64,000 nucleotides of DNA from Clavelina lepadiformis (Eukaryota; Chordata; Ascidiacea; Aplousobranchia; Clavelinidae): positions 7,442,501-7,506,500 of the forward strand of contig NC_135241.1 in assembly GCF_947623445.1 (NCBI RefSeq), given 5' to 3'. The notes under the pieces are model-generated. The model had not been told where the DNA came from. It saw only the letters and a list, made by a program, of their open reading frames with translations, and searched no databases. Positions 3,546 through 53,304 of this stretch are shown in pieces (the first letter of the stretch is position 1; every line of letters begins with the position of its first letter). A program made the translations under genes and the position numbers.

Positions 3546-6500
3546 ATTTATTTAACGTAATTTGTAGGCTGACAATAACATGTCTAAAACAAGTGCGCTG
3601 AAACCTGCCAAGCTAGAAGTTGACATCAACTGCGAAACCGCCAGCAAATTGTGGAAACATTGGAAAAGAACGTTTGATAACTTCCTAGCTGAACTTGCGC
3701 GAGAACAAACTTCTACAGCTCCTCCCATCAACAAACTTCAACTATTGACGAATTTCGTGTCGGCGGAGATATTTGAATTCATAGAAGATTGCAATACGTA
3801 CGACTCTGCTGTTGAAATCCTACAAAATTTACTCGTCAAGAAACCGAACAAAATCTTTGCTCGCCACTTATTGGCAACGAGAAAGCAGCAACCAAGCGAG
3901 TCCCCAACCCAGTTTATGCAAACGTTGCAAATACTCAGCAAAAACTGCCAGTGCAAAGATGTGACTGCGGAACAATATCGCAAAGAACTCTGTAGAGATG
4001 CATTTATTAATGGTCTCGCATCTCCCTCGATCCGTCAAAGACTTCTAGAGAATACAACCCTTTCTCTCGAATCAGCAGTAGACCAAGCAAATGCGTTAGA
4101 CATGGCAATCAAGAATGCCTCCGCATACAACATGCACAGCACAACATGCTCATCGGCCTCCACAAGCCCGCAAAGTCTTCATAGTAAAAATGAAATAGAG
4201 AATAGAGGAGAGCTCGAGACAACGACGTACATCGCAGCTTCTTTCAAAAAGAAAAAGTGCTACTTTTGCGGTTATGACTTTCATGACAGGAGATCTTGTC
4301 CAGCGCGAAATCTCACGTGCAACAAATGTGGAAAAATTGGACATTTCCTGAAGGTATGTAAAAGTAAATACCCTTCGAAAACCGTCGCTACAGTAGCAAA
4401 AGCTACACCGACCGTGTGCGCCATTTATCCGCACAACCTACTTGAAGCGGCGTTAATGATATCAATACGTGATCAAAACCTATGCGCCCTGGTTGACTCT
4501 GGAAGTTCCGATAACTACATCAATGCCGTCACCGCAAAATCACTGAATCTTCCAATAACCCCAACACGCCAAGAAGTATCCATGGCACAAAGCAGCTTAA
4601 GATGTACAATGTTAGGTTCCTGCACAACCAACATCGTCGTTAACAACCGCAAATACGAAAACGTTCAACTCGGTGTCATGGACAACTTATGCAGCGACGT
4701 GATCTTAGGTCAAGCATTCCAGAAACGGCATAATCGGCTTATAATCCAATATGGTGGTATTGAGGAAGACTTTACCTTATCCAAACCCATAGTCTGTGCT
4801 TTACCAGCGGCCACAATTGCAATGGAAACCTTATTTCCACAGTTACCAAAGTCTTGCAAACCTATTGCAGTCAAATCACGGCGGTATAGCAAACCTGATG
4901 AACAATTTATTCGAGAAGAAATCAACAAAATGCAAGATGATGGTGTAATTGAACTCAGTCGATCTCCGTGGCGAGCACAGATAGTAGTTGTTCGCACTGA
5001 AGGAAAAACCCGAATGTGTGTGGACTACTCGCAAACGATTAACCTTTACACTCACGTAGATGCATATCCATTTCCAAGGATAGATGACCTGATAAATAAA
5101 CTTGCAAAGTATTCCGTCTTCTCAAAATTCGACTTGAAATCCGCATATCATCAGATTCCGATATTGGAAACCGACCGTGTCTACACAGCGTTTGAAGCTA
5201 ATGGCAAGTTATGGCAATACAAAAGAATTCCATATGGTGTCACAAACGGAGGGATCAACTTCCAGAGAGCAATTGACCGCATCATTGATGAAGAAAATCT
5301 GAACGACGTTTTCGCATACCAAGATGACGTCACGGTCTGTGGCAGGACACAACAAGAACATGACGACAATGTCCAAAAACTGCTTAGCGTATTCAAACGC
5401 CGAAACTTAACATTCAATGAAAGCAAGACTGTCCAATCGGTTTCTCAAATCAACGTTCTTGGTTACCAAGTCCAACACAAAACGATCAAACCAGATCCTG
5501 ACCGACTACAGCCACTTCAAGAATATACTCTCCCACAGAACAAAAAGGCTCTACAACGCCTTCTTGGCTTCTTGTCTTACTATTCGAAGTGGATTCCACG
5601 GTTTTCCGACAAAGTGAAACCACTAACGACAGTCCAGTCCTTTCCCCTCAGTAAAGAGGCTGAGCAAGCGTTTCACCAGCTTCTAACGGAACTGGCCACT
5701 ACCTCATTACAATCCATTGATGAGACTACGCCATTTGTTGTTGAGTGTGACGCTTCAGATGTTGCGATATCAGCATCTCTAAATCAAGGTGGACGACCGG
5801 TCGCGTTTATGTCACGTATGTTGCACGGAAGTGAATTGAAGTATCCAGCTATAGAAAAAGAAGCGACTGCAATCATCGAAGCTACTCGGAAATGGAAAGA
5901 TCTTTTACAACGCCAAAGCTTCGAACTAGTAACTGACCAGCGATCCGTAGCTTACATGCTTGACAATCGTCGTCGCACGAAAATCAAAAACAATAAAATC
6001 CAAACTTGGCGTTTGTAACTTGCCTCTCTTAATTACTCAATTCGCTACCGTCCTGGCAAAATGAACCCGGTCGCAGACTGTCTCTCAAGATCAACCAGCG
6101 CCTCTATCTATCAACCAAGTCAACTAGAAGACATCCATAATAACCTGGGCCATCCTAGAGTCACCAGAATGTTGCACTTTATTCGCATGAAGAATTTACC
6201 CTTTTCAACCGACGAAATACGGAAGGTATGTTCGAACTGTAAGATATGCGCTGAAAATAAACCACGATTTTACAGACCTCCCCAGACGGCGTTAATAAAA
6301 GCTACAAAGCCAATGGAACGAATTAGCATCGACTTCAAAGGACCGATACCTTCATCATCTAAGAACAAGTATATCTTAACCATAATCGACGAGTACTCAC
6401 GATTTCCGTTCGCTGTGCCGTGTCCAAATATGAACTCGACAACAGTGATTCAGGGCCTGAATCAACTGTTTACCCTCACTGGATTACCCAGTTATATTCA

Positions 6501-7983
6501 CTCTGACCGTAGACCCTCTCTTATATCACACGAACTTCGTACTCACCTTCGAAACTTGGGAATTGCAACAAGTTCATCAACCCCATATCACCCCACTGGA
6601 AATTCCCAAGTGGAGAGATACAACGGTTTCATCTGGAAAACAGTTACGCTAATACTCAAGTCAAGGAAACTTCCATTACCCCAGTGGGAACTAGTGTTAC
6701 CTGAAGCCCTGCATTCCATAAGGTCGCTGCTCTGCACGGCATCAAACGTGACACCTCACCAAAGATTTTTCTCCTTTGACCGACGCTCTACCTCGGGATC
6801 TTCAATGCCATCGTGGCTGATCGCTCCCAATAAAGTGTACCTCCGACGTTTTGTACGCAACAGTAAATACGATCCCTTGGTAGACGAAGTTGAATTGATA
6901 GATACAAATCCAACGTATGCACGCGTCCGACGGCCAGACGGACAGGAATCTTCAGTGTCTTTGAACGATCTCTCTCCATGCCCTCAAGAAGCGCCAAACA
7001 GGGACGAAATACCCGTCGCAGGAAAATTTATAAGCAGTCCTTCACCAAACATTGAAGTTCAAAACGATGCCCCTGTCACGGACGAACCAGAAATAGAGAA
7101 CATGCCGACAGAAAGAAATCTTCGCCGATCAAGCCGAACCAACAAAGGGGTACCTCCAGCTCGTTATGGCGAACAGTGAAATATTTCGTATGTAGACTAA
7201 CTTGTGTTACCTATCAGCACGTATACGATACGTGTTCAGTATATGTTATTTTGTGTACGTGCTTATTGCAAGCCCAAGCCAATGTATAATACCATGTCCA
7301 TTATACAATCAAAGTATTACACCAAATTTATTATGGGCCAGGTGAATGTAATGAAAATTCCTGTGTTAAACTCGCCTCGTTTATCTTGATTACTTGTGTT
7401 TGTATGCTTCGCGCATTCCTTAGTCGTAGGGTGGGATGCACCAAACCCGATCAAGTACAGATTACTTTTGATCCGCGATTAACTACTGTTGATCTTTACT
7501 AACGGTATGCACCAGCGACGATCAGAGATAATCCAGGATTAAAATAAGGCATTTAATCCTTGAATTTAATCCTACTGACGAGGAGGTTTAAGTCTAGATC
7601 AATGTGAATAATTGATGAAAAGCAAGTTTGTGGAAGTATTGGAGAGTGCTATAGGTTGTGTATTGGAAGTGCTACTAGCCTTTGAGCCAATATTATATGC
7701 AATGGCAGTAATACAGTACTACAGAAGGGTAGGCCTATCAACCGTTGAACTTATATGGCAGGTAGCAGAGGCTTGCGTTGCTTTATTTCATTATATTATT
7801 AATTGCAACCTACATAGCAGAGAGATTAAGCGTTAGCTAGATTTTTTATGGAATACAAATAAAACTATGAGACCAAGCATCGGTTAACCTTTGTTAACAT
7901 AGATTAGTTACCTTACCTTATGTTACCTTGTTTATTGTGTCATTTTCTGTCAGATTTAGCAATAAAACGTTGCAAATATTATA

Positions 7984-24672: not shown

Positions 24673-27600
24673 TTAAAACAGTGTTTCTTTAGGAGCAGTC
24701 TTTGATAAGATTTCAAAAATCTTATCTTTATGCTCATTCATGTTTAACTTCGATAAAACCTTGCGGTCCACAATAAGTCCCGCTGACAACAAAACAATGT
24801 AGTATAAGCTGCATTTGTAAAGTTTCTTGGCTGCTCTGCTGTTGCCTTCCCTGTAATAAAATGAACATGCTTAATAACTTGCAGCAATTATGAAACAGCT
24901 AAAATATTTTAAAATACCAGGACTTTTAACATAGTTCATACCAGGGCTTTTAACAGCTCAACCATGTAAACATCATACTATAAGTTGTAACATGCATTTT
25001 TAAAAAGTACCATACATACATTAAAACCTGAACTTTAGTTGAAAGGAAATATTGCATAAGCAAAGGATACATAACACAATGGTAATTATGCAAACAAATA
25101 CATACCTATAAAAATTAAATGAATCTTTTGTTAGCCAAAAGTTTAACGGCACTGATAACCAAGTAAAAGCCCATGACGCCACAGCAGTAGGCGGTGCAGC
25201 AAAGCAGAGGGCCCATAGAGATAATGCATGTACAACCACTACATATTTCGTTGCTTGTGGATGTGAAAGTGGGAGCATTTGGTAATTTCCCCGGGCATAA
25301 TCATTTCTTCTCCGCCATGCCAAAGCATAAAAATGAGGAAATTGCCAAGCATAAAGAATTCCAGAGAATATAAATGCACCTATAAATGCATTAAAAACTA
25401 AAAGCTAACAATAAGACACTGCAAAGTAATAGCATAACAACGAGCCACTTCACTGTAATGGATGAAAAGACCTTGCACAACAAGCCGGGCTGATACAAGC
25501 CCTTAAAGATTTGCGAAACAACGATCCATTTTTCAAAATGCGTATGAATACTTCATTTTCTGTGTAATTACTGTGATTGACAAGATGTTATAATTTTATT
25601 TATTGACAAAAGCATTGCAGTAAGTATCACTATTGATTTAAGAGTGCAGCCATGCATTTAAAAGACAATAAACTACACTTTTGTGAACAGATTCAGCAAC
25701 TAAATCATTTATGTTGCAAACTTGCAACCCAAATGAAGCAAGGTATGGATAAAATATTTTATTGGGATACTGACATGAATTGATTTGAGACCCATTTGTG
25801 TTTGTGCTAATGTAACTCTTATAATGTTGAACTCCTTATCATATAGCATATAGTCTATAGATAATAATTAATCCATAATTAAGTACTTCCAAGATTCTAA
25901 TCTTAAAGAGAAAATTAAACAGTTGTAAATCTAAGCATATTTATATATTTCAAAACATAACAAACTGTTATCTCGTCTTTGCATTTAGTTGTATGTATAG
26001 ATTTTCACGCAATAGACTGAATTTGGTTCCTTGTGTAACCAAGCGTGTTATACTGCAAACACTCTATGCAATAAAGCGAGAGTAACATTTCATGGTATCA
26101 TTTTTATAAAAACTAAAGCTAGACTCTACATAATTATGACTGCAATGCATATTCACCTCTGATATGCTAAAGAAATGTATCGATTTAACCATTCCAAATT
26201 TTAATAACAAGGCTCCCAAATCCTCATTTATTAATAATTCTATATACAGTATAATAATAAATAAAAATTTAAGCAAAACACAGTATTCACCAAACTTGAA
26301 AGTTTAGCACTTTTGCCAAGAAGGCTAATAATATTGACCTAAATATATGTTTTATACCTGCACTGATCTGGCCTGTTGCAGCAGTCCATCCCATGACAGG
26401 AGGAATTGCGCCAACAACAGCACCGACCCAAGTGTTGAACCAATGAACTCGCTTTAAAGGAGTATACACAGTAGCATAAAGAAGAATGGTTGAAAGTCCT
26501 AATGATGCAGTAAGCAGATTCACACCTGCATTGTGAAAAAAACAATATTATATGTACAAATATTACACCTTTAAAGATAAGCACCACTACAACTGTTAAG
26601 GTTACACACAACAGGAATATATTTCTAGTTGATTTTGTGGTTGAAGATATTACAGCTGAAGTAGTGATAAAACACTACTAACATTTGCTACACAATGCCC
26701 AAAGCCCTGAACATTAAATATCTCCAGCCAAACTGAATGATGTTATTGCGATAAGCAAGCTGTCTGCAGCAGAACTAACGGAACATTCACATAGTGCAGC
26801 TTTCAATTAATAAGTACCAGTATGTAATTGTTATTTCATCACACATTCAGACACTGAAATGTAGTGAATTACCTCCATAAAGTATAGAAAAGCCTGCAGC
26901 TCCACTAATTACTGAAAACCCAAATGCATGATTTGGTGTGATAAGATTACGAACAAGAGGCCTTCTTCGTGTTCTATCCATCAATGCATCATATTCAACT
27001 TCTGCAATCTAAAAATAAAATTGCACACACCTAAGTAAAAATTCTATATGTTATAATCTCCATGTCAACATTGCATTTTTTCTGCAAATGCTCAAATTTA
27101 TCAACTCACGTGAAATGACAATCATGCTTTAGAAAATGGTAAATTAACTACAACTGTATCAAAATACATTTACCATCCTGATCTTATATAAACCAATTTT
27201 ATGCAATGCTTTTTTATTTTTCTTGATACACAACAATTATAATATAAAAACTAACTCAAAGTGCTGTTACTTTTGCTTGGACATTAAAATTTTGTAAAAT
27301 CATAGAAACATACTTTTCTTTTATAATTGTACATGAACCATAAAACCATGGCTTTAGCCATTAATGAATAACTTTGTCCCGACTGAAAAATTTGTTTGCA
27401 TCAACCGTAAAAGTTGTTGTGTGAAATATTTTTCTTGAAAGTTTACATGGAGTCAAAAACTTAATAAGTCTATGATCCATAGCTTAAAACTTAGTAAAGG
27501 TACCATTAGTGTTGCACGTAACACAGAATTTTGATTACGTAATTCTTATTACTGCAGCTACATAAAAATCCCATTATAATTCACGTGCGTACTTTGCAAG

Positions 27601-40531: not shown

Positions 40532-43500
40532 ATGTCTTTCTGTTCTTTTTTTGGTGGAGAGAAATACAAAAATCATTTCAAGTCAGGTAAGTCTTCGTCT
40601 CTAGCACTTCAGTATTTTAATGCTACCATCTCTCATTGTGATAATACAATTTGCAATGCAACTTGTGTATTTGAAACTAGCTAATTTGGTAATTTAGGGT
40701 GTACTAATGTATAGTTGCTCAAATGTTTGTATCTGACCCAAAAAACTCTTGGCTACACTTAATGGAGCCCTAAGATTTTGCCGAAGCCTGAGTGAAATTA
40801 TCATATTGTTCCAGTTTTTAATGTTAACTAATTGTTAGTGAGCATGTTCTTTGTTGTACTGTAACGGTTAGCAGCATTATTTTCACATCACTCAGTTAAT
40901 GACAAAAAATAAATGGTACGAAGTTAGACGATTTTGACAAAAAATTGTGCATACAGTTTAGAGTCACCAAGTTTGCCTGACAGTATCCACTGAAACTTCA
41001 ATTCTTTGTTTAATTTTTGTAAATAGGCAGACGAAGAACCAATTATGTCTTGTTATCTTTATAAAATTGGCGAGTATGGGAAAAAAATTTTCACAAGCAC
41101 TTTGATTGTGAGTAGGGTTAGTTCGGATATCAATAATTTTTACTATCCGGATAACGGATATATCCGTATATTTGGAATTTATCTAACCGGATAATAACTG
41201 CTAAGTGAGACAATCGATTTCACGAGGTTTGCATGAAAAATGGATTGTAAAATCATTACACAGTTTTATTGTAGATCTACGTACATGCGCAGTACGAGCG
41301 AATACGAGAAAAATCACGCAAATTTAATGTTCACTGCTTCTGCAACGCCCTCCTTATAAAGCACAATGCATCAATTGTGGAATCCTGTAGACGGGACCGG
41401 AGTTTTGTAACAAAGAGTCCACATGCACTGAATGCTCTTTCTGCTTCCACAGAAGTGGGCTGAATAGTAAGTAGCGCTTCATAGAGAGTCTGAAGGTTGG
41501 CAGGTCGTTTCCCAGAAGCTTTAAAGACTTCACATTCCTTTTGGACCATTCTTCTGTTTAGGTTTGGAGTACTGGAAGGACGAGTAGCTGATACTGGAAT
41601 TGATGCCGACATGATAGCTCGCTCTAATTCCTCCTTGAGAGATTCGTGTGATGATCCTCTACATACCGTGGTAGAAGCGAGTGATATCAACTGGCTGTCT
41701 TCTCCAGGACCACGCTTTGCTGCTGCAATCAATTTTTGCATTAGGGTTGCTGCAAGAGCATACATCTTGTTTCCGTATTCGCCAAATGTATCAAGCTTGT
41801 TCTCCATCAGAAAATTGGGATCATGCAAATATTCAACTAGATGAACAAGACATGCATTTCTCCTTTCCTTGATTCTTACCTCAAGTACGCAGAATTAGAA
41901 TTAGAAAGAGTTTTAAGCACAAATTCGTGAATCCGCTCAGCAGTTAGAAGTGTAGCGTCCCTTCTGCAAAGTCCATCTACAGCATGTTTAACTGGTTCAA
42001 GGACATCAATCAGATCATGGAGAATTTTAATTTCTGCTTCCGTAATGGTGATAGAAGTTCCAATCTCAACAAGAGCCATTCTGATACATTTTTCTGCTCT
42101 TACAAATGTTTTAATCATCTCTAAAAGACTGTTCCATCTGGTCTTTGAATCTAGAATTAACTTCAGCTCTGTATTCAATTGTGCTTGGATATGCTTTTGC
42201 AGAATTTCGTTCTTAAGAGGACTTTTGCGAAACATCTTCACCACTGTTCTTACCTTCCTTATCACTTCCCCAACAAACCGTTGAAGTTCTACACCGGTTG
42301 TTTCAGTCTCTACAAGATCTACAGCAGCTTCATCAGCTTCTTCCATCTCTTCTGAAGAAAATTTTGAATCCGATCCAGTATTACTATTTTCCCTTTCATT
42401 CTCTAATCCTTCAAAGAGATTTTACCTTGCATACAAGAAGTCAGTTACTGCTAAATGATAACCATGCGCAAAACAGAGCTGGTGGACACAAGTTACACAA
42501 CAAATCATTCTTCCAAAACTCTTCATCACACTAGCTCCATCTGTCGTAGCTGCAACAATGTCTTCCATCTTGAGGCCAAACTCCTGCAATCTTTCTTCCA
42601 CCAAATTCGCTACTCTTTCAGCTGGAAGAGAACCTTTGATTCTTACCATTCCTAAATTAACGGGGTCTGAATCATAGTGCAGGGTTAAGTTCATGTATCT
42701 TCTGCTTCTTGTGCTTGTATATTCATCAAGAGTGACAGAACAGAATTTTCCAGTCTCTTTTTTTATTTCAATCATTTCCTTTGTATCGCTTTTCAGTGTT
42801 TGGAAAAATGTCATGATAATACTTCTGACATTTTGCACCGTTTGTGGTAGCTTGTATCCTCTTGCTAAAAATGCTCGTCTCAGTTGCTTACTAGTAGCTA
42901 TGGTGTTGAAAGAAATTCTGTCCACAGCTGCTAGCTCTGCAACAACCCTCTCCAGCGACTCTTTGGTTGGCTTAAAATAGTTTTCAATCGTGCTAGTACC
43001 TGCGGAACATTTGTTTGTGTTTTCCAAAGAAACTTGCTGTTTTGCTTTCTTTGTGTCAAGAACAATCTTATGTTTTAAACCAAGGTGGTTTCTCATTGCT
43101 CCTGTACATCCACCTTTACAAGAAATCGTGTTTTCACAGGTTTCACATTTTGCCCTCTCACCATTTCTTGATCGTAGAAAGTAGCCCCAAACTGGATTAT
43201 CACTTTTGAAACGTTTAAATTCCATCTCTTAAATTTAGTCACTTCAAACTAGGTTGTAGTCAAAACTTTTCAACTGACACTTCACAGACTTTACCTTGCC
43301 GTGAGAATGCAGTCTTCTATTAAAAGAATCATTCATTATGCTTTCTTTGTGACGTGATAGTAAATTTCACTCGTGCATTTTACGAGTACCGTAGTTGAAA
43401 GTATAAGACAATAGAAGTGTGAACAAAGGTTTAATTGCGCTCAGCGGGAGTCTGCCTCTACGTAACAAAGAATGTTCAAACTTACTGTAGTAAAACGCAT

Positions 43501-44438
43501 TAGCAACGATACTCTTTTAGCCGGTTAACTGGCAGAATTATATCCGGATATCAGATAGAAAAAAAAACTGCGGTTAATCGGTTAACCGTTATCCGGATAA
43601 TCCAACCTTAATTGTGAGCGTGTGTCATGTTTTGTGCTAATATTTATGAGTAAATCACCATTACTTTAATTACCTTCCTAAAACAGTAAATTTGAGTTTT
43701 AATCCCCTGAGTGATTTAAAACGAAATTATAATGGTGATGTATGTTTTTATCGTGCTGTTATAAATACTTTAGATAACTACTAGTCAAATCAGTTTATGA
43801 TTGCAGGTATTTATGTTTGCTCAAAATGTGAATATGAGCTATTTTCAAGCACATCGAAATTTGAGCATTCATCACCTTGGCCAGCATTCACCGAAACAGT
43901 ACATGCGGACAGTGTTTCAAAGCACCATGAATCTGCTACAGCATTAAAGGTTGTTGTCAATGTAGTTTAGAAGAAATAGTACATTGTTTTGTTGTCTATA
44001 TCATTTAGTAGGCTCAGTAGTGAGTGGTTCAAGCGACACTTGCTCCTGTTCTGTGGATATGGCATAATGAATAGCTCTAAATTCGGGCAACATAACAAAA
44101 ATGCAAATAAAAATATGTGACAATCGTAACTTGCACAAAAGCCTAGTTCTGTAGCCGGGATTCAGGCAACAAAGCCTTATTGTCGGTTTTAAGTTGTGCA
44201 AAGAATTTGGTTAGTCTAAGGATTATCATACCATACGAATGTCCGTGGTTTATATGAAAACGAAACATCAGGCTTTTTACATAATTATATGGAGCAGTAA
44301 TAACAAGACCAGTATTTCAGGTGCGGTGTGGAAAATGTAATAATGGCTTGGGTCACGAATTTCTCGGAGCTGGTCCCCAAGATGGACAATCAAGATTCTG
44401 AATATTCTCAGAATCATTGAAATTTGTGCCAAAGAAGT
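40532..44438 (+). CDS. MSRB1: Methionine-R-sulfoxide reductase B1, selenoprotein (last exon not found)
   Basis: Reduces methionine-R-sulfoxide in cytosol and nucleus. Exons 40532-40586, 43807-43949, 44321-44438 join in phase. Exon 1 reads [16 protein letters not shown], almost the vertebrate start, with Cys4 that resolves the catalytic selenocysteine. Zinc cysteines are C23/C26 (YVCSKC) and C69/C72 (RCGKC). [16 protein letters not shown] and NGLGHEFL are typical. At codon 93 (44399-44401) an in-frame TGA follows GQSRF, exactly where MSRB1 has selenocysteine, and the frame continues [12 protein letters not shown] as in vertebrates. The model stops at a strong donor GTAAGT after 44438; the final short exon and the SECIS element were not located. 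Intron 1 (3.2 kb) carries a hAT transposon. Confidence 0.93.
41113..43610 (-). mobile_element. hAT (ZBED-like) DNA transposon in MSRB1 intron 1
   Basis: 2,498 bp flanked by a perfect 8-bp duplication ATTGTGAG (41105-41112 and 43611-43618). Ends TAGGGTTAG and CCAACCTTA are short imperfect inverted repeats followed by ATCCGGATAAC-type subterminal repeats. The minus strand encodes a nearly full transposase. Confidence 0.95.
41331..43225 (-). pseudogene. hAT transposase (BED finger, DDE, dimerisation domain), lightly broken
   Basis: Three consecutive minus-strand blocks cover the whole protein. 43225-42422: a BED-type zinc finger ([20 protein letters not shown] ... HLGLKH), the first catalytic region (SVTLDEYTS) and the second ([10 protein letters not shown]). 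42346-41876: helical insertion domain with [11 protein letters not shown]. 41828-41331: C-terminal dimerisation domain with [21 protein letters not shown] stop follows the first block (after FLYAR) and a one-base frame shift lies between SAYLR and the RIKERRN stretch; the upstream sequence [11 protein letters not shown] continues the third block. Two small lesions suggest recent loss of activity. Confidence 0.9.
44399..44401 (+). other. In-frame UGA read as selenocysteine in MSRB1
   Basis: TGA at codon 93, between QSRF and IFSESLKF. Conservation of the downstream residues and the family's known selenocysteine at this place support recoding rather than termination. Confidence 0.85.
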
Positions 44439-46859
44439 GTAAGTGGGTATCATTCTGCAAAACTATAAAACAATTTGCAAACCTGTATGGTGGTGCTAAC
44501 AATGTTGAATTATTTAATAGAACTCCTTATTTTACCCATTGGATGATGCACACAAAATATGCAACAACGGAAAAAGCACAATTCTCTATGTACATATTCA
44601 AATATCTCTATGTTTTATATAGTGACTTAGCATGTTAACTGCCATTGCCAACCTTTCCTTAAACATGAACATTTAAAAAGGTGTTAGTGATTGGTACCTA
44701 CCATGTAAATATTTGATCTTAAATAAAGCCTTGGTGGCAATACAAAAGTAATAGGTAAAGTCATAATTGACTGAAGAAATTAACCTACTTTTTACCAGAA
44801 AGTTTTTGTGGCAGTCAACATGCTAATAGATATTGTTTAAAGTACTAACCTTAAAAACTTCAATGTCAATTTTTGTTTTATAATGTATACTTATCTATGC
44901 ACCTTGCTATCCTAGCATCACCAGTGGGTTTACTGTATCTGTCCTATGTATATGATGTGACAATTACAACCAGCTAGCATGACTGTATGAAAATGATAAA
45001 CAAAAGCTTTCAAGCAGTTTCTCACTGGATGTCGTCATGCATCCTGATGTACTTGTGACCTTATATGCCATGGAGTGAACATATGCTATATTATTCACAT
45101 GTAAATAAAAGAGTAAAATGTTGGATGAGCAAAGCAAAATTTAAAGACTTGACCCAGAGTAGATGCAAACAGCTCAGATAGGAACTGCACACATTTAACT
45201 AGATAATGCGATCGTAGTTAAAAATGTAAGCAATTAGCTCTTTTAAGTTCAAAGAGCCCAACTCCGGGATCAATCAGAAATAAAGGGCATCTCATGGACC
45301 ATCCTTCACATCCCATTAACATCTTCATCGTGGCTAAACAGATCCTAAAACTTCACCAAGTAATTCACAACCACCCTCTCATGCTTAATGTTAGGAATGT
45401 TCATCAGGGAAAATCTCAACTGATTTGGTCAATGGTCTTTGTTGTTAGGAATGTTGTGTCTGCTTGATCTTCTCCACCAAACTAGTCTTTTCTCAGCAAA
45501 GTTGATAAATGTCTAGGTAATGTCTTTTGTATTCGAAAGAATCTATTTGGGCAATACTTTGCAAATCTATTCTGTTTTGGGTTTGTATCATACATCTTAC
45601 TCACATTCAACGTCCAATTACACCTATTATTTTTTCACTATGTAGCAATCTGATATTTTTGCAGTAACAATCTAATTTTACGACTGTATATCTTGCAACT
45701 TTAATTAATTTTGTTCCACGTTCTAGAAGTAGTAAATATAATCGCATTATCTAGTTACAGTTACTAGGCAAAATGTTCATAATGAAAATGTTTGCATCCA
45801 CACTGTTCAAATGTCTTTGCCTTGTAAATGTTTCCCCAACTATTAAGCTCACTTGCTTTCGTTCATAGATTGTTTATTACTGCTGATTAGTTGAATTTTT
45901 TGTGCATGTCAGGTATGAAATTTTCATTTACTACTAGTAATTAATCACAGTTCGCCAATGGCACTTAGATTTATTGAAGTTAATACTCATCAATGTGCAA
46001 TAAAATATTGTTTTGCTGTTATGAAAAATAGTGTTACTTTTAATATAATGTTACTTATATTATAGCATTTACATTGGTCCGAAAACTATTTAATCAAACA
46101 CAGAAGCATGTTATTATTTTTTTAAAGCTAACAATTTCACAAAATATTGTACAAGATCCGACCATAATAAAATTAACTATAAACAAGCAATGGAAGAAAA
46201 GCATAACATCTGAAAATTAAGATTGCAAATTAAGGGAAGTTGGTACATACATTATAAATCTAGTTTAATTAAATGAGAAAACATTAGACAGCATCATGAG
46301 TGTAAATTAGACTTTGCTAAATTAGATTTTTGTAACGTATTCAATTTACTTTTCTTGCAAGTGTTTTCTAATTAGTACATATACACATCTCCAAAATTAG
46401 GCCATGTTTCATTGTAAAAAATGAATACACTTTAGGTACAGCATGATCAAGCCAGTTTTACAGATATTACAAAGCTAGATGTTCTAACCAGAATTAAAAA
46501 ACACAAACTTTTTTGGTCCATTTAACACATTAAATTTAATTATCAATAATGCTAGGCAATTCTTATAACACCATACCGTCCATACCACTTACATGTCTAG
46601 AAACTCTTCATGAGTCTTGTCCACTTCCTCCATGTTTCACGCAATCCACGCAGATACGGCCATTTTGTAAGAGTTTATTACTCACAACAGCGAAGGGTTA
46701 AATTTAATGGTGCCATAATGATTATAGGTTGGCACAGCCATTAACCCCAAAAGCATTTACGTTATAGCAAGAAACACAGCAATAATGTATATGCTTGCAG
46801 AAGTTGTTGATGTGCACATGGATGGTTAAAATAAAACAACATCCAAAAGATCAGAATCT
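44439..46859. other. AT-rich stretch downstream of MSRB1 exon 3
   Basis: Should include the last MSRB1 exon and 3' UTR with its SECIS, which I could not place. Scanned ATGA...AA...TGA candidates, for example near 44,665 and 44,980, do not fold into the expected helix. No other gene recognised. Confidence 0.45.
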
Positions 46860-51026: not shown

Positions 51027-51926
51027 TTATAACTTAACTTTTCCTGTTGCGTTGCTTCTTCGTCTAACTGCTAAAGGAAGACTTGAATTTTTGTCAGGAT
51101 TTAAAGGACAGTGACCCAAAGTATGGGCATTATCTCCACTTGCATAACAGAGAGGACACACATAGCTTCGCAAGATCGGGCAGGTAACACGATTAAGGGC
51201 ATCCTTTAATTGATGAGACATTACCCATTCTTCCACTTCTTTGTTATTTCTGCAAAAAGAGCAGCCATGATTTGGCTGCTGTTGCAATTGACTCATCACA
51301 CCGGAAGTGTTGATCTCTTTCTTAATTTCTTGTTCATTTGGGTTGCTCTGCTGCAGTGATGTGGGGCTTTGCTGGGTTGACAGCAAGCTCTGTCCCATCA
51401 AAACTTGGCTTGCAAATGGAGAATGAGCAGGAGATGAACCAGTTGAGTTAAGTATTGGTGTTGACGGTGCTGACGAAAACGGAAAGTAGGAGGGGGGAGG
51501 TGAAACATTCATAGGCTGGGATGTCATGGTTGGAAAACCAGTAGGAGAGAACTGGATTGATCTATTGTTGTTACTACTGTAGGTGGGTATTGGGCCATAT
51601 GAATTTTGATTTAATGATAAACTTTTGTGTGAAAGACCAAGCTGAGAACCACACTTGACATTGGGACTCTGAACAGTCTTTTGTTGATTTAGATAATTGT
51701 TTGAATGGCAAATTTGTGAGTTATTACCGTTTAAAGACATTTTCTCTTTGTATTTATGAATTATTTCCTCCAGACGTCTGTCTAACCAAGCAGAGTAGTC
51801 ATGTGGAACACTACTGACCACATCTAATGTACTGTGATCATAAACTTTACAAGTCTTATCTTCATCCTGTTGAATAATGCTGGAAAGTCCAAAATAATCA
51901 CTGAATGGGGAAAATGATTTCTCCAT
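51027..51926 (-). CDS. nanos: Nanos RNA-binding protein (intronless CDS)
   Basis: Germline translational repressor acting with Pumilio and CCR4-NOT. 299 aa from the second in-frame Met (AAAC ATG G context, directly after an AAAAAA run and CCAG); an upstream Met at 51959 would add 11 residues. Residues 5-18, [14 protein letters not shown], match the NOT1-interacting motif of vertebrate Nanos. The middle is a low-complexity Ser/Pro/Gln/Asn linker. The C-terminal double zinc finger is complete: Cys222, Cys225, His238, Cys249 and Cys257, Cys260, His268, Cys273, with [15 protein letters not shown] and [11 protein letters not shown]. The tail is basic ([12 protein letters not shown]). A TTTTTTTTCAG at about 51,990 may be a 5' UTR or spliced-leader acceptor. 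Confidence 0.96.
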
Positions 51927-53304
51927 GTTTTTTTTTCTGGTAAAGGAACAAATGCACAATGATCAAACAGATAAAACACTTAGCAATTCCCTGAAAAAAA
52001 ATAAGTATAAACATTATAAAATTAAGACCATGTGATAATGCTCTTAAAATAGGTCAAGCTGGATCACATGTCAGCCTTCAAATGTGGAAACACATGTGCA
52101 CAATAAAAAATGTATAAAGGCAAGACCATTTTGGAAAATGTAAATTGTGCGGATTCTTTCAGGGAAAGTTGGCAAAACAGCTGCACAAACAAAAAAATTA
52201 GTTGCCTTGAATTAAGGTTATCAAATGTCTTAGCATAATTTTAATATTGATAATGCAATGGAACACACACGCCTAGAAAAAGCATGTAACACCAATAACA
52301 AAAACCTGATGGAGAGTTTCAATATATTAAAATTATGCAAAACAGATTACTTGAGTAAAATTCATTAAGCACTATTGATCAAACAATTAGATTCATTTCT
52401 CAAAAAACAAACCTTTGAAAATGGAGCGTATTTACTGTTTATGGTAGTTGTTTGGCTGCACTGTTATCGTACTGATTCACATTCTTCACCGCTTTGTTTC
52501 GTTTACCACCTTTTATTTATTTTTTATTATAAAAACGATCCTTTTGCTTAATTCATGAAAGGTTTTCTGTAACCTGTAAATCCATATTATGCAAAATTTC
52601 CTCTAATGAAGGAGACATGTTATTCGTTAACTCCTAAACTAGTTAACATGTTTGTGATAAACGTTCTACTATGAATCTATCTGCTCTTATCATCATGATT
52701 GCAACCACTTTTTGTTTAAATATGGCTGGGAGAGGATTAGCTTTAATTCAATTTACAGTTTGGAGAAAAAGTATGTCATTTTACGTTGAAAAATAGCGTT
52801 TATTTTAATTTTCAGAGTAGTAATTTAACCATGAAAAGTGAATTTGGGTTACAAGCATTGGTGTGAGCTTAGCATAATAACCAGATGTGCTGCGTAACAT
52901 CATCATGTTTCGTCATGACATCACATAACTAAGTGATTACCCCAAGTGCAAAACAAAGCATGTCCAAGTTTTGCGATTAAGTAATTGCCAAGGTTTCATT
53001 TAATGTTACAGTCAAACAGCATAAAAACGTACTCATACGTTGTTTCACATTGCTTAGATTTGACATATAAAAAGTGTAAGCATTTCTTCAGAGAATTTCA
53101 TGGATATAAGTCGTTAAGTTTTTTGTTTGGAAAATTGGTACAACGACATTTTTTAAAGACGGATTACGACCATACAATTAAAGCAATGTATGTATGCATT
53201 AAGACTTATTACACTGAACCATTTTCATGCAGACAACCGATACAACAAATTATAAACTAATATTATTATATAAAAATTATAATAATAATAAATTTTTTAT
53301 CAGA
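51927..53304. other. Upstream of nanos, no further gene recognised
   Basis: Includes the nanos 5' region. A plus-strand ATG at 52,671 opens a 43-residue hydrophobic frame that reaches a GTATGT donor-like site; I do not call it a gene. Confidence 0.35.

What the first reader, a model, noticed from the sequence alone, without database searches (positions are those of the whole stretch)
40532..44438. MSRB1 gene with an in-frame UGA read as selenocysteine
The exon 3 frame passes GQSRF, a TGA, then [12 protein letters not shown]. Vertebrate MSRB1 has selenocysteine at exactly this site with nearly the same residues after it. Automated annotation would stop at the UGA and drop the catalytic residue. 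The resolving Cys4 and four zinc cysteines are all present. The final exon and SECIS remain to be placed after 44438.
Basis: partly seen in the sequence, partly recalled or inferred. Interest (0 to 1): 0.8.

Follow-up and report, generated by a model that had tools for sequence, protein, structure and literature searches.

The report
Sea squirt MSRB1 selenoprotein gene
This looks like an ordinary, intact sea-squirt copy of the selenium-containing repair enzyme MSRB1, in which a UGA codon that normally means stop is very likely read as selenocysteine; it matters mainly as a gene that automatic annotation may cut short.

Summary
Exons 40532-40586, 43807-43949 and 44321-44438 join in frame into MSRB1 (77 of 103 residues identical to solved MSRB1 2kv1, UGA site left out), with TGA at 44399-44401 (codon 93); 10 of the 11 residues after the UGA match. 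The missing SECIS lies at 44977-45040 + (Rfam SECIS_1, 31.5 bits, best of 9 RNA-family hits in the window). It is below Rfam's 35-bit cut-off, but so are the genome search's three hits, which lie 3' of SELENOF, a GPX and TXNRD. The model is insensitive here: it found 3 of 8 control loci with a clear UGA frame. The last exon probably starts at 44799 and gives TAA right after KFVPKK; this is inference. Chromosome sizes point to the ascidian Clavelina lepadiformis. Matches to tRNA-Sec, SepSecS, PSTK, SPS with in-frame TGA, SBP2 and eEFSec are present. One mild point: the 2010 Ciona table lists no MsrB/SelR. No RNA or protein evidence was available.

The parts
40532..40586 (+). MSRB1 exon 1 (coding part), [19 protein letters not shown], ends in phase 1 before GTAAGT
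   Evidence: aligned to MSRB1 2kv1
41105..43618 (-). hAT transposon in intron 1, antisense to MSRB1; 8-bp duplication ATTGTGAG at 41105-41112 and 43611-43618
   Evidence: Dimer_Tnp_hAT, zf-BED; duplication
43807..43949 (+). MSRB1 exon 2, first CxxC pair CSKC
   Evidence: (SelR match on this exon)
44321..44438 (+). MSRB1 exon 3, second CxxC pair CGKC, UGA and [12 protein letters not shown]
44399..44401 (+). In-frame TGA, codon 93, predicted Sec
   Evidence: aligns with Cys in the solved chain 2kv1 and Ser in 3mao; that the natural residue there is Sec is recalled
44439..44798 (+). Proposed intron 3, GTAAGT ... TTTTTACCAG
   Evidence: splice-site inference, no RNA data
44799..45125 (+). Proposed exon 4: completes the stop (T|AA) and holds the 3' UTR; end approximate, after AATAAA at 45104
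   Evidence: inference
44977..45040 (+). SECIS element, form-2 type by eye: 7-bp stem GCAUGAC/GUCAUGC, AUGA at 44987, AAAA at 45002, mini-stem GCU/AGC, GGAU at 45027
   Evidence: Rfam RF00031 31.5 bits at 44979-45038; layout checked letter by letter, pairing by eye
45104..45109 (+). AATAAA poly(A) signal after the SECIS; another at 44722 lies before it, in the proposed intron 3

Best explanation
A functional MSRB1 (selenoprotein R) gene, most likely with four exons, of the ascidian Clavelina lepadiformis. The UGA at codon 93 is decoded as selenocysteine by tRNA-Sec delivered by eEFSec, recruited by SBP2 bound to the form-2 SECIS in the 3' UTR. Sec93 would be the catalytic residue that reduces methionine-R-sulfoxide, Cys4 the resolving cysteine, and the two CxxC pairs hold zinc (roles recalled from vertebrate MSRB1). 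Shown here: the frame, splice-site sequences, conservation, a SECIS-like element and matches to the machinery. Inferred: the place of intron 3 (about 0.7 for the acceptor at 44798), expression, Sec insertion and enzyme activity.
For: Intact frame with GT/AG borders. 77 of 103 aligned residues identical to 2kv1 leaving out the UGA site, 10 of 11 after it. The post-UGA stretch adds about 25 bits. SECIS_1 31.5 bits, the best of the 9 RNA-family hits (E up to 10) in the 64-kb window, on the gene's strand and 3' of it. The three hits of the genome-wide SECIS search all lie 3' of selenoprotein genes: SELENOF, GPX and TXNRD. tRNA-Sec 75.3 bits; SepSecS; PSTK-like; SPS with in-frame TGA; SBP2 exon matching PDB 7zjw; eEFSec domain III. 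Other UGA frames: SELENOT, SELENOW, three GPX, TXNRD, SELENOF. The SelR search of the genome gave three matches at two places: this gene and a Cys-type MSRB, 38% identical.
Against: The SECIS is below Rfam's 35-bit cut-off, and nothing in the window reaches gathering score. A free ViennaRNA fold does not give the SECIS shape (z -1.08, 24 of 200 shuffles fold as well); this is not decisive because the core has non-standard pairs (recalled). By eye the upper stem has two mismatches in ten. In my own simple pattern scan the element ranks second in the window, and 24 of 100 random 64-kb sequences had one as good. The genome-wide SECIS search did not list the window hit, having scored 133 of 4313 candidates. 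Five of eight control loci with a clear UGA frame gave no SECIS hit. The selD and PSTK matches are below their curated cut-offs. No transcript or protein data.
Confidence: 0.95

Rival explanations
1. No intron 3: the frame runs on past 44438 and stops at 44636-44638, giving 66 further residues after KFVPKK, with the SECIS still 3' of the stop.
For: The frame is open beyond 44438 to that stop.
Against: Homology to MSRB1 stops at VPK, just before a GTAAGT donor. The AG at 44797-44798 gives an immediate TAA. An AATAAA at 44722 would then come before the SECIS. In most mammals MsrB1 has 4 exons (PMC3316567, passage seen).
Confidence: 0.12
2. Intron 3 exists but uses another acceptor, for instance the TAG sites at 44621 or 44914, which tie with 44797 in pyrimidine content; the protein would then end in a few other residues.
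For: One search lists 20 AG sites between 44460 and 45000; 44621, 44797 and 44914 share the top pyrimidine fraction (0.71).
Against: Of the four CAG sites, 44797 has the highest pyrimidine fraction; its use ends the protein where homology ends.
Confidence: 0.15
3. Some transcripts use the AATAAA at 44722 inside the proposed intron 3, lose the SECIS and stop at the UGA, so poly(A) choice would switch Sec-MSRB1 on and off.
For: AATAAA at 44722 lies between the UGA exon and the SECIS. SECIS-less forms of SelS and a similar case for GPx3 are reported (PMC3316567, passage seen).
Against: AATAAA is frequent here (five in the 1.8 kb scanned); no RNA evidence.
Confidence: 0.08
4. A decaying pseudogene or a real stop at the UGA.
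For: Only the stop codon itself.
Against: Intact frame, splice-site sequences, conserved residues after the UGA, SECIS, and no second MSRB1-like place in the SelR search.
Confidence: 0.02

Closest known systems
Vertebrate MSRB1 (selenoprotein R; solved chains 2kv1 and 3mao, mouse and human by recall)
   Same: Sec site, Cys4, two CxxC pairs, GLGHEF, sequence after the UGA; 77 of 103 residues identical to 2kv1 outside the UGA site
   Different: Two residues shorter before the second CxxC pair; proposed end at KFVPKK; hAT insert in intron 1
Cys-type MSRB in the same genome (C2:3737699-3737986)
   Same: SelR domain, CxxC pairs
   Different: 38% identity (37 of 98); Cys where MSRB1 has Sec (RYCMNSASLSF); no stop inside its matches
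Ciona intestinalis selenoproteome (PMC2874816, section 7 with Table 1 read)
   Same: Ascidian with SPS, TR, GPX, SelT, SelW and 15-kDa selenoproteins
   Different: No MsrB/SelR among the 18 listed selenoproteins

Membership tests
MSRB1 selenoprotein | SelR (MsrB) domain | tested here: met
   PF01641 E 6.5e-22, residues 10-103
MSRB1 selenoprotein | Closer to MSRB1 than to MSRB2/MSRB3 | tested here: met
   2kv1 171 bits and 3mao 154 bits against 52.1 at most for MSRB3 and 43.7 for MSRB2; no tree was built
MSRB1 selenoprotein | UGA at the catalytic site with conserved downstream frame | tested here: met
MSRB1 selenoprotein | Two zinc CxxC pairs and N-terminal resolving Cys | tested here: met
   Sequence, aligned; the roles are recalled
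MSRB1 selenoprotein | SECIS in the 3' UTR | tested here: inconclusive
   The element is there: RF00031 31.5 bits at 44979-45038 +, below the 35-bit gathering score, as are the three other hits of this genome. That it lies in the transcript is inferred and was not tested
MSRB1 selenoprotein | Sec-insertion machinery in the genome | tested here: met
   selD and PSTK matches below their cut-offs
MSRB1 selenoprotein | Selenium present in the protein; methionine-R-sulfoxide reductase activity | not testable with these tools
   Needs mass spectrometry, 75Se labelling or an enzyme assay

The most novel reading that the evidence does not exclude
Tunicates kept Sec-MSRB1 in the Clavelina lineage while it was lost or changed in Ciona, so MSRB1 could serve to time Sec loss within one chordate group; the AATAAA between the UGA exon and the SECIS might in addition act as a switch between Sec and truncated forms.
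Probability: 0.2. Interest if true: 0.35.

Novelty: new member of a known kind. Interest (0 to 1): 0.2.

Why it matters
It corrects the model of one gene (catalytic residue, SECIS and probable last exon placed) and adds a tunicate Sec-MSRB1 that the published Ciona list does not contain. It changes no general picture: MsrB1 is reported as a selenoprotein in all vertebrates of PMC3316567 and SelR in all six invertebrates tabulated in PMC3473315 (passages).

Tried and rejected
Rfam at gathering score found nothing in the window; the evalue setting was needed. A free RNA fold of the SECIS was uninformative.

Of the 15 TIGR00475 (selB) hits I read five (L051-L054, L058), none recognisable to me as eEFSec. 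In that script L045 and L058, both minus-strand hits, were probably translated on the wrong strand, so they are not judged. An unread sixth hit, C4:9210262-9210399, turned out to lie 0.8 kb from the eEFSec domain III matches that PF21208 gave.

The SECIS search in ten control loci found 3 (L039 GPX, L040 TXNRD, L041 SELENOF). The other seven gave none: L032 SELENOT, L033 SELENOW, L034 and L035 GPX on C3, L036 GPX on C7, L037 SPS, L038 GPX on C2. Five of these seven hold a clear UGA frame (L032-L035, L037); in L036 and L038 my pattern found none. So the model found 3 of 8 control loci with a clear UGA frame, or 4 of 9 with MSRB1. My own pattern scan was only mildly specific.

No paper holding both Clavelina and selenoprotein was found in the library. 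Figure 6 of PMC3473315, which shows Ciona per family, cannot be read here. Passages of PMC8744743, PMC5371997 and PMC7961861 added nothing on tunicate MSRB1.

Full report
Observation. Reading the sequence gives an MSRB1 model on the + strand: exon 1 40532-40586, exon 2 43807-43949, exon 3 44321-44438, with GT/AG borders and compatible phases. The only interruption is TGA at 44399-44401, codon 93. The protein [10 protein letters not shown]...[18 protein letters not shown] matches solved MSRB1 2kv1 at E 7.7e-50 over residues 1-104 (species of the PDB chains recalled). Leaving out the UGA site, 77 of 103 aligned residues are identical, and 10 of 11 after it. The script printed 78 of 104 because I had put U at that site in both rows; the solved chain carries Cys there, so I subtract it. 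Cutting the query at the UGA lowers the score from 171 to 146.4 bits. The SelR domain match crosses the UGA.

SECIS. Rfam's SECIS_1 model matches 44979-45038 + with 31.5 bits, E 0.0031 for the 6.8-kb stretch and 0.029 for the whole window, where it is the best of 9 hits with E up to 10. By eye the element has a 7-bp lower stem GCAUGAC/GUCAUGC, AUGA, an upper stem with two mismatches in ten, an A-rich loop, a mini-stem and GGAU (letters checked): form 2 in type. It is under the 35-bit cut-off. The genome-wide search gave three hits, of 32.4, 28 and 25.5 bits, also under the cut-off. They lie, on the same strand, 3' of SELENOF (VCG*KIGRYPQVQ, then KWNTDSVEEFLNEKL), of a GPX with TGA, and of a thioredoxin reductase ending NGC*G*: 3 of 3 hits that did not come from this finding sit beside selenoprotein genes.

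Limits of the SECIS evidence. The genome-wide search scored 133 of 4313 candidates and did not list the window hit. Five of eight control loci with a clear UGA frame gave no hit. A home-made pattern scan ranked the element second in the window, and 24 of 100 random first-order Markov sequences of 64 kb held one as good (27 in all). By my arithmetic from that, about 0.0015 would be expected by chance on the sense strand in the 690 bases after exon 3; the pattern was set up after the element had been seen. A free fold does not show the SECIS shape.

Last exon. One search lists 20 AG sites between 44460 and 45000. The CAG at 44796-44798 (TTTTTACCAG) has the highest pyrimidine fraction of the four CAG sites (0.71); the TAG sites at 44621 and 44914 tie with it. 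Joined to exon 3 it makes T|AA, a stop directly after KFVPKK. The SECIS then begins 176 nt after the stop, and AATAAA at 45104 follows it. Four exons agree with most mammals (PMC3316567, passage seen). This is inference from sequence. Without intron 3 the frame runs on for 66 residues to a stop at 44636-44638 and the SECIS would still be 3' of the stop.

Genome. Lengths of the eight large contigs seen (C1 28.78, C2 26.53, C3 25.73, C4 25.07, C5 24.62, C6 20.77, C7 20.45, C9 15.73 Mb) agree to about 0.01 Mb with Table 2 of the Clavelina lepadiformis genome note (PMC10884593, passages seen; abstract start). The window is C2:7442501-7506500.

Machinery. tRNA-Sec, 75.3 bits, over the cut-off. SepSecS, two tandem copies, each in one open frame, 464 of 480 aligned columns identical. 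PSTK-like, 115.4 bits over one open frame, below the 382-bit cut-off. selD, four exon matches, each below the cut-off, with the frame LKG*GCKVPQ, the Sec form. An SBP2 exon whose only PDB match at E up to 0.001 is SBP2 (7zjw, E 9.2e-15). eEFSec domain III, 61.7 and 58.6 bits, over the cut-off. So UGA decoding looks available in this organism.

Mechanism. By what is established for MSRB1 (recalled), Sec attacks methionine-R-sulfoxide, Cys4 resolves the intermediate, and thioredoxin/TXNRD recycles the enzyme; both zinc pairs are structural. These residues are present. I saw nothing that departs from the known system.

Novelty. MsrB1 is among the 21 selenoproteins found in all vertebrates surveyed (PMC3316567, passages), and SelR is listed for all six invertebrates in the table of PMC3473315 (passages; section 12 read). 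The Ciona intestinalis list of 18 selenoproteins has no MsrB/SelR (PMC2874816, section 7 read; words beginning msrb or selr are absent from its main text). Whether Ciona lost it or the survey missed it I could not test. No paper with both Clavelina and selenoprotein was found in the library. The finding is right and ordinary.

Noticed in passing
41105-43618: hAT transposon in MSRB1 intron 1, antisense, with BED-finger and hAT dimerisation frames, similar ends and a perfect 8-bp target duplication ATTGTGAG; looks fairly recent.
   Followed up: partly
L030 and L031 (C6:2413286-2414476 and 2417964-2419154): Two tandem SepSecS genes, starts about 4.7 kb apart, each in one open frame, 464 of 480 aligned columns identical.
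   Followed up: partly
L037 (C5:8694500-8703500), minus strand: Selenophosphate synthetase with in-frame TGA (LKG*GCKVPQ). The ascidian glycine form described in PMC4561486 (passages) was not seen in this 9-kb stretch by a simple pattern, which is a weak test.
   Followed up: partly
51027-51962 -: Nanos-type zinc-finger frame (PF05741) in the neighbourhood of MSRB1.
   Followed up: no
3568-7179 +: Gypsy-like retrotransposon frames; the first holds protease, reverse transcriptase and RNase H domains. The Gypsy label is by eye.
   Followed up: no
C1, C2, C3 and C4: 52 weaker tRNA-Sec-like hits besides the real one, most in clusters (for instance C2:23298392-23375237); possibly arrays of ordinary long-arm tRNAs.
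   Followed up: no
25021-25404 -: UbiA-family exon (PF01040); the COX10 name is by eye.
   Followed up: no
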